A DNA stretch of 64,000 nt. It comes from Betaproteobacteria bacterium (GTDB lineage: Bacteria; Pseudomonadota; Gammaproteobacteria; Burkholderiales; JACQAP01). Below the pieces are notes generated by a model. The model did no database searches. It saw only the letters and a program-made list of their open reading frames with translations, and was not told the DNA's origin. The translations under genes were made by a program, and so were the position numbers. The DNA lies in NCBI GenBank assembly GCA_016194905.1, contig JACQAP010000008.1:1-64000 (forward strand). Direction: 5' to 3'. Positions 39,105 through 40,621 of the stretch are shown one piece after another. Numbering within the stretch: position 1 is the first letter of the stretch; every line of letters starts with the position of its first letter.

Positions 39105-39120
39105 AGCGAAGAGCGTTGAC

Positions 39121-39141
39121 GCAAAGGGCGCAAAGGAAAAA
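39121..39141. repeat. Iterated CGCAAAGG motif
   Basis: Units CGCAAAGGG and CGCAAAGGA run in tandem just after the MFS stop. They are the same type as the inverted copy at 1071-1110. The gap between the MFS gene and the DpnI-like gene (39105-39575) also holds the antitoxin remnant and otherwise nothing I recognise. Confidence 0.45.
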
Positions 39142-39332
39142 AGAGAGGGCGCGAAGTAAGTGCGGGATGGGGCGGTGCGGGAGCGTCGCCCCTTTTGTTT
39201 TGGCTTTCTCCCGGGATTCTTCCCCTTGAAGCCGCGTGGCACTCAGCACGCATCCGTTAACGCATAAGTTGCGCTTGCGCACTAATCCGCAGCAGAATGA
39301 TGCTGTATCGACTATGACGCGGAGGTTTTATC

Positions 39333-39510
39333 CATATCCACGGCAAAAAAGAAGAACTCACTCGTCTGATCCAGGAGCAACCGGAGGACAGATCGCGCGA
39401 GGAAATCGTGTGCGAGCTTGCCTTTTATGTCATGGTGGAGCGGGGCTGGCTGACTCGGACGCAAAACGCACGATTTCCAGTGAATTGTCGTCACTTCTGA
39501 TGTTTATTTT
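39333..39510 (+). pseudogene. Decayed antitoxin-like gene
   Basis: One frame reads KKEELTRLIQEQPEDRSREE then IVCELAFYVMVERG; after a frameshift of one base near 39440 another frame reads LADSDAKRTISSEL. Joined, they resemble the short antitoxin-type proteins that end in VERGLADSDAGRTIS-like tails. There is no proper start codon in frame although GGAGG is present at 39321. No toxin gene follows; the DpnI-like gene does. Confidence 0.5.
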
Positions 39511-39575: not shown

Positions 39576-40424
39576 ATGCTCGCCTATGACACAGATTTGA
39601 ATCTTGATCTTGCTTTGGGCGACCGCTACAAAAGCGAGACGCAAAAGGCAAGGGTTATTTCGGAAGCATGGACCGAAAGAAATGCATTCTGCTGTTCATG
39701 CGGAGGCACCCTGACAAGAGGACAAAACAATGCGCGTGTGCTTGATTTCACCTGTGTGAAATGTGAAAACGAATTCGAATTAAAGAGTACTCGTGGAAAT
39801 TTCTCTACCAAGATACCCGATGGAGCATTTGAGGCGATGATGGCCCGCCTAAGTGATGCTTCTAGTCCGGACTTCTTTTTTCTCACTTACGATGTCAGCT
39901 CTTCTCGCGTGACAAATTTCTTTGCAATTCCAACCTACTTCCTTGATGCAACCGTAATTGAGAAGCGAAAGCCGCTGAGCCCTCAGGCGAGACGCGCAGG
40001 CTGGGTAGGATGCAATATCGTCATGAATCGCATTCCAGAAGCTGGTAGGGTTTTCTACGTAAGGAACAGCGAAATCCTAAAAAGGTCGGCTGTCATAGAA
40101 ACGTGGGGACGAACTGCTTTTCTGCGGCGTGAAACGAACCTCGAAGCTAGAGGATGGACACTGGAGATTCTTCGTAATATCCAGTCTCTAAATGTCCGAG
40201 AATTCACGCTTCAAAAAATGTATGACTTCGAGGCTCAATTGAAGCGGCGATTCCCGCGCAACAATTTCATTCGAGCTAAAATTCGCCAGCAATTGCAGGT
40301 CTTAAGAGATGCCGGCCTCATAGTGTTCGAAGGTCGGGGACGCTACGTGGCCAATTTTGGTCCCTCTATCGAACCATCGCAACATATGCAGCCCGCGAAC
40401 TCGGTAATCTCTGTAACAAATTAG
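39576..40424 (+). CDS. DpnI-type methyl-directed restriction endonuclease
   Basis: A 282-residue homologue of DpnI, which cuts GATC only when its adenine is methylated. The catalytic PD-(D/E)xK residues are D57, E68 and K70 (LDF...FELKSTRG), four positions later than D53/E64/K66 of DpnI. Zinc cysteines lie at C39/C40, C42, C60 and C63. RRAGWVGCN includes W143, the counterpart of the methyl-sensing tryptophan. The C-terminal winged helix (RGWTLEILRNI ... IRQQLQVLRDAGLI) is also matched. The ATG at 39576 has GGAG upstream and matches the DpnI start. It is clearly more AT-rich than its neighbours, suggesting transfer. No methylase is nearby. Confidence 0.92.
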   Translation: MLAYDTDLNLDLALGDRYKSETQKARVISEAWTERNAFCCSCGGTLTRGQNNARVLDFTCVKCENEFELKSTRGNFSTKIPDGAFEAMMARLSDASSPDFFFLTYDVSSSRVTNFFAIPTYFLDATVIEKRKPLSPQARRAGWVGCNIVMNRIPEAGRVFYVRNSEILKRSAVIETWGRTAFLRRETNLEARGWTLEILRNIQSLNVREFTLQKMYDFEAQLKRRFPRNNFIRAKIRQQLQVLRDAGLIVFEGRGRYVANFGPSIEPSQHMQPANSVISVTN

Positions 40425-40435
40425 GAGGGGAATCG

Positions 40436-40621
40436 GTGTCTTATCTTAACTACTATCACTGCTCTTGTGGAACGCGTTGGGTCGATACGTGGAGTTGTAC
40501 GTGCAATGATCGATGCCCAGTATGCAATAAGGAAATCGAGCCTTATCGTTCGGATGACTTTCCTCAGAACGAAGGCCAGAGTTCGGTCGCACCCGCGCAA
40601 CGCAATGATGCGGCCATATAA
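40436..40621 (+). CDS. Small zinc-ribbon protein
   Basis: A 61-residue protein starting at GTG with AGGAGGGG upstream. Cysteines in HCSCGTRW, SCTCNDRCPVCNKE form a likely zinc ribbon. The C-terminal 25 residues are polar. It starts 11 bases after the DpnI-like stop and shares its AT-rich composition, so it is probably the second gene of that unit. It does not look like the pneumococcal DpnD partner from memory. Role unknown. Confidence 0.65.
   Translation: MSYLNYYHCSCGTRWVDTWSCTCNDRCPVCNKEIEPYRSDDFPQNEGQSSVAPAQRNDAAI

What the first reader, a model, noticed from the sequence alone, without database searches (positions are those of the whole stretch)
39576..40621. DpnI-type methyl-dependent restriction enzyme on an AT-rich island in a GC-rich genome
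The catalytic D57/E68/K70, zinc cysteines, W143 and winged helix all match DpnI in order and spacing. Such an enzyme cuts GATC only when adenine-methylated, so the host cannot have Dam-type methylation without self-damage. The composition differs sharply from both sides, and a zinc-ribbon ORF follows 11 bases later. It would defend against phage or plasmids from Dam-positive hosts.
Basis: partly seen in the sequence, partly recalled or inferred. Interest (0 to 1): 0.65.

Follow-up and report, generated by a model that had tools for sequence, protein, structure and literature searches.

The report
DpnI-type enzyme with zinc-ribbon partner
This bacterium carries a horizontally moving gene pair: an enzyme almost certainly built to cut only adenine-methylated GATC DNA, and a tiny zinc-ribbon protein that travels with it; in related genomes such enzymes sit in, or are broken by, a restriction-modification system that probably makes that methyl mark.

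Summary
Window 39576-40424 (+) encodes a full-length DpnI homologue: Pfam DpnI 2.6e-62, DpnI_C 1.9e-27, 47% identical to S. pneumoniae R.DpnI, with every catalytic, zinc and methyl-sensing residue kept. It is the lowest-GC kilobase of the window. The host (99.8% complete) has no Dam-family (D12) methylase, though two other DNA methylases have unknown targets. The 61-residue ORF is real: its ribosome site overlaps the DpnI stop, it is under purifying selection, and it follows DpnI in four of five DpnIs of this clade, found in three phyla at unrelated loci. It also follows a distant DpnI (43%) in another genome. It is not DpnD, the partner downstream of other DpnIs. It is not DpnI-specific: relatives occur on plasmids and phages without DpnI. 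New beyond the finding: close relatives lie inside the wreck of a BglII/BstYI-type restriction-modification locus with an MT-A70 adenine methylase. A distant DpnI lies in the same kind of locus, and in a third genome the intact methylase sits where the catalytic half of a broken DpnI should be. This parallels drg/dam in Neisseria and DpnI/DpnII in pneumococcus, and predicts that the MT-A70 enzyme methylates GATC. Known enzyme; new cassette variant.

The parts
39576..40424 (+). DpnI-type m6A-dependent restriction endonuclease gene (catalytic + winged-helix domains)
40423..40430 (+). ribosome-binding site AGGAGGGG for the small ORF, overlapping the DpnI stop codon (translational coupling, inferred)
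   Evidence: sequence
40436..40621 (+). 61-aa zinc-ribbon partner ORF (six cysteines: CxC...CxC...CxxC), conserved downstream of DpnI
39348..39484 (+). frameshifted, truncated remnant of an antitoxin gene just left of the cassette; 77% identical to an intact antitoxin-toxin pair elsewhere in the genome (G000:C21)

Best explanation
A horizontally acquired two-gene cassette. Gene 1 is a DpnI-type Type IIM restriction enzyme that cuts GATC only when the adenines are methylated, so it needs no protecting methylase and destroys DNA coming from Dam- or DpnII-type-methylating hosts or phages; it is tolerable only in a host without m6A-GATC. Gene 2 is a co-translated small zinc-ribbon accessory protein, standing where other DpnI loci carry dpnD; the most likely role (inferred, about 0.3) is to bind nucleic acid or the enzyme and tune its expression or activity. 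Shown here: homology, residue conservation, composition, absence of Dam family in host, conserved adjacency, purifying selection. Inferred: cleavage specificity, defence role, partner function.
For: Domain and residue matches; Drg of Neisseria, a family member (37% identical to the window protein), was shown to cut only GmeATC (PMC4269198). No PF02086 in own genome nor in same-genus G001 that carries the cassette. Cassette at different loci in G000 and G001, only the cassette being shared DNA there, and in MAGs of two other phyla at 75-78% protein identity. dN/dS 0.08-0.17 for DpnI and 0.17-0.35 for the partner in all pairs with unsaturated dS. Partner present in exactly the 2 of 4 genus members that have DpnI; in 396 genomes of the phylum only 4 have the partner family and 2 of those 4 have it directly after DpnI (Fisher p 0.003 with the window's own genome included).
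Against: No activity or methylome data. Two resident PF01555 methylases of unknown target (L003, L004) could in principle methylate GATC-containing sites. Partner family also occurs on plasmids and phages with no DpnI, and is missing after most DpnIs sampled, including an interrupted DpnI of the same clade in G829.
Confidence: 0.88

Rival explanations
1. The zinc-ribbon ORF is a passenger: a common small mobile-element gene that happens to lie after DpnI and has nothing to do with it.
For: Relatives on Burkholderia, Methylomonas and Phaeobacter plasmids and Pseudomonas phage KPP25 lie among unrelated genes.
Against: Follows DpnI in 4 of 5 members of the clade at loci that share little else, ribosome site overlapping the DpnI stop, purifying selection, and an independent occurrence after a 43%-identical DpnI in G220 that falls in another supported clade.
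Confidence: 0.35
2. The enzyme is DpnI-like but its main role is regulatory, as proposed for gonococcal Drg, or its site preference has drifted.
For: Drg loss changes expression of 195 genes (PMC4269198).
Against: All catalytic and methyl-contact residues are kept and DpnI dN/dS is low, 0.08-0.17 where dS is not saturated.
Confidence: 0.08
3. The host does carry GATC adenine methylation through another methylase, so the enzyme must be silent or inactive.
For: Seven PF01555 matches in the genome, two of the methylases without known target.
Against: No Dam/D12 match; assignable systems point elsewhere: XhoI-family RM and a type III-like mod beside a helicase. Intact ORF under purifying selection.
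Confidence: 0.07
4. The restriction-modification remnants around related DpnIs are chance neighbours rather than displacement.
For: The window and L009 show no such remnant; small fragments in L010/L011/L098 have E only 1e-3 to 2e-6.
Against: In L010 the R start lies before and a 73%-identical MT-A70 end lies after the cassette, in the same order and strand as intact R-M pairs; L098 repeats this with another DpnI lineage; L100 shows an intact MT-A70 gene in place of the DpnI catalytic half. One of 100 runs with shuffled queries reached 0.002, the rest 0.007 or worse.
Confidence: 0.3

Closest known systems
R.DpnI (dpnC) with dpnD, Streptococcus pneumoniae DpnI cassette
   Same: Same two-domain enzyme, all key residues, stand-alone without methylase, exchangeable cassette, small ORF downstream.
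   Different: Partner is a zinc ribbon, not DpnD-PcfM (PF14207); locus unrelated; 47% identity.
drg (dam-replacing gene; NmeBII / Drg) of Neisseria
   Same: DpnI-type gene of lower GC than its genome; relatives of the window's cassette interrupt a methylase-bearing locus just as drg interrupts dam.
   Different: In the window the cassette lies beside a broken antitoxin gene, not in a methylase gene; the displaced system in its relatives is BglII/BstYI R + MT-A70 M rather than Dam.
BglII/BstYI-family R + MT-A70 M systems (e.g. Comamonas pZM22-2, Roseomonas p5)
   Same: Their ends bracket the DpnI cassette in L010.
   Different: An ordinary R-M pair; site of the methylase not determined in what I read.
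Small zinc-ribbon proteins of plasmids and phages
   Same: Same CxCG.xW.D.WSC.CNDrCPvCnKEIEP motif.
   Different: There not next to DpnI, often part of longer proteins.

Membership tests
DpnI / Dam-replacing family (Type IIM endonuclease) | Pfam DpnI catalytic domain over its gathering score | tested here: met
   210.1 bits against 26.7
DpnI / Dam-replacing family (Type IIM endonuclease) | Winged-helix DpnI_C domain | tested here: met
   95.6 bits against 23
DpnI / Dam-replacing family (Type IIM endonuclease) | PD-(D/E)XK residues D53/E64/K66 and four zinc cysteines | tested here: met
   D57/E68/K70, C39/C42/C60/C63
DpnI / Dam-replacing family (Type IIM endonuclease) | methyl-sensing L129, R135, W138 | tested here: met
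   L134, R140, W143
DpnI / Dam-replacing family (Type IIM endonuclease) | cuts Gm6ATC and not GATC | not testable with these tools
   needs protein
DpnI / Dam-replacing family (Type IIM endonuclease) | host lacks m6A-GATC | tested here: inconclusive
   no PF02086 and no PF05063 match (no positive control); specificity of two PF01555 methylases unknown
Canonical dpnC-dpnD operon | DpnD-PcfM protein downstream | tested here: not met
   small ORF has no PF14207 match, whereas L014/L015/L024 do
drg insertion in a methylase locus | gene lies inside a broken GATC methylase locus | tested here: not met
   no R or M remnant near the window cassette; met for relatives L010 and L098 only with respect to an MT-A70 R-M locus

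The most novel reading that the evidence does not exclude
DpnI cassettes and BglII/BstYI-type R + MT-A70 M systems are antagonistic alternatives that repeatedly replace each other at the same locus across phyla, a general form of the pneumococcal DpnI/DpnII switch; this class of MT-A70 enzyme therefore methylates the adenine of GATC-containing sites (RGATCY or AGATCT), and the zinc ribbon is a functional alternative to DpnD.
Probability: 0.45. Interest if true: 0.6.

Novelty: new variant of a known kind. Interest (0 to 1): 0.42.

Why it matters
It places a self-sufficient methyl-dependent enzyme with a new small partner in little-studied bacteria of several phyla, so it bears on which organisms can accept Dam-methylated plasmids (for example from E. 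coli). The locus histories give a direct, cheap test of whether conflict over one methyl mark drives replacement of restriction systems, and assign a likely target to an uncharacterised bacterial MT-A70 class.

Tried and rejected
Clean empty site: in G002 the flanking genes pcaB-CMD-MFS and abhydrolase-methyltransferase keep their order, but other genes fill the gap, so the insertion point cannot be read. Dam absence as a statistical signal: of the sampled genomes with a DpnI match over cut-off, G259, G296 and G308 (all f45) have a D12 match; in the whole phylum sample 145 of 398 have one over cut-off, so this says nothing. AlphaFold model of the DpnI protein had pLDDT 47 with four sequences and was not used. 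Fold search with the partner model gave only zinc-ribbon look-alikes with E >= 0.27, no function. Sigma-70 promoter and terminator scans found nothing. GATC is not avoided in the window (557 seen, 543 expected), as expected for a methyl-dependent enzyme. A 36-residue R-like match in L103 (E 0.003) is no better than shuffled queries and was dropped.

Full report
OBSERVATION. The ORF 39576-40424 (+) encodes 282 residues and is followed after 11 bases by a 61-residue ORF, 40436-40621. The first is a complete DpnI homologue: Pfam DpnI 2.6e-62 and DpnI_C 1.9e-27, PADLOC Type II methyl-directed enzyme 7.8e-88, R.DpnI structures 4esj/4kyw 8.7e-73, 46.6% identity over 249 aligned positions. The cassette is 48% GC in a 61% window and is the lowest-GC kilobase there; codon third positions drop from 0.71-0.80 to 0.48.

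HOST. The genome (4.75 Mb, 36 contigs, 99.78% complete) has no match to PF02086, the Dam family, while the same search rings in four control genomes, and none to MT-A70 (without a positive control). It has seven PF01555 matches: one is a type III-like mod gene beside a helicase, one is paired with an XhoI-family endonuclease, two (L003, L004) have no assigned target, the rest are partial. So the lack of Dam is shown, the lack of all m6A-GATC is not.

MOBILITY. In the same genus, G001 has the cassette at an unrelated locus with 78% DNA identity limited to the two genes, and G002 and G003 lack both genes. MAGs of Methylomirabilota (L010) and Deltaproteobacteria (L011) carry it at 75-78% protein identity. 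The left side in the window is a broken, frameshifted antitoxin gene whose intact cousin sits elsewhere in the genome.

PARTNER. The small ORF follows DpnI in the window, L009, L010 and L011, and a 90-residue relative follows a 43%-identical DpnI in the single-contig genome G220, which falls in a different supported clade, so adjacency arose twice or was lost in between. A fifth clade member, in G829, is split between two contigs within the gene and has no partner after it. The ribosome site AGGAGGGG overlaps the DpnI stop in the window. dN/dS is 0.17-0.35 for the partner and 0.08-0.17 for DpnI in the pairs where dS is not saturated; in one DpnI pair (L009-L011) dS is saturated and no ratio is meaningful. 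The model is a confident small beta fold (pLDDT above 90 in the first 40 residues) whose closest solved folds are mostly zinc-binding domains with insignificant scores. Other DpnI loci (L014, L015, L024) instead carry a DpnD-PcfM protein, and many carry neither. The family is rare on chromosomes of the phylum (4 of 396 genomes at E 1e-5, two of them directly after DpnI; candidates per genome were capped, so some may be missed) but also occurs on plasmids and phages without DpnI. Its function is therefore not implied by the neighbourhood alone.

DISPLACEMENT. Upstream of DpnI in L010 and L011 lie the first ~41-47 residues of a BglII/BstYI-family endonuclease. Downstream of the partner in L010 lies the C-terminal part of an MT-A70 methylase, 73% identical to residues 64-200 of that of Comamonas pZM22-2. 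In Comamonas and Roseomonas plasmids R and M lie in this order on one strand and overlap by four bases; in Rhizobium and Roseivivax plasmids they are convergent. Thus the cassette appears to have replaced the middle of an R-M pair. A distant DpnI (35% identical, L098/L104) also has an R-like fragment before it and an MT-A70 C-terminal fragment after it. In G296 (L100) an intact MT-A70 gene starts where the catalytic half of a DpnI gene is missing. No remnant is present at the window or L009. BglII and BstYI cut GATC-centred sites (established knowledge) and m6A at RGATCY is recorded in Azospirillum and Sinorhizobium (PMC4706337, PMC11711589), but I found no paper that assigns such a site to an MT-A70 enzyme of this group. 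The pattern is the one expected if the methylase makes the mark that DpnI cuts, as with drg in dam (PMC4269198) and the alternative GATC cassettes of pneumococcus (PMC12707154).

VERDICT. A real, intact DpnI-type enzyme (confidence about 0.9 for m6A-GATC-dependent cutting), in a mobile two-gene cassette with a partner that I did not find described next to DpnI (one full-text search for the two terms together). The enzyme is a known kind; the partner and the locus history make it a new variant.

Noticed in passing
window 39109-39160: A ~50-base intergenic sequence (gcgttgacgcaaagggcgcaaaggaaaaaagagagggcgcgaag) is dispersed in more than a dozen copies in the genome and present in same-genus genomes.
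   Followed up: no
L100 6686-7984 (G296:C11): Intact MT-A70 methylase gene head-to-head with a DpnI gene that has lost its first ~85 codons, including the catalytic residues.
   Followed up: partly
L097 and L099 (G829): A DpnI of the window's clade is split between two contigs near the same codon (after VIET), as if interrupted by an inserted repeat.
   Followed up: partly
L087 817-1683: DpnI winged-helix domain fused to what looks like a phospholipase-D-type nuclease domain (motifs read by eye), a possible other m6A-reading nuclease.
   Followed up: no
phage hits H17-H18 and L035: DpnI winged-helix-like domain alone in Haloarcula hispanica pleomorphic virus 4, in a protein annotated as HNH endonuclease in one of its two records.
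   Followed up: no
L002 (G000:C9:147298-151005): XhoI-family restriction endonuclease next to a PF01555 methylase in the window's genome.
   Followed up: partly
L104 939-1184: An unnamed 82-residue acidic ORF takes the partner slot between a distant DpnI and the MT-A70 remnant; no Pfam match.
   Followed up: partly
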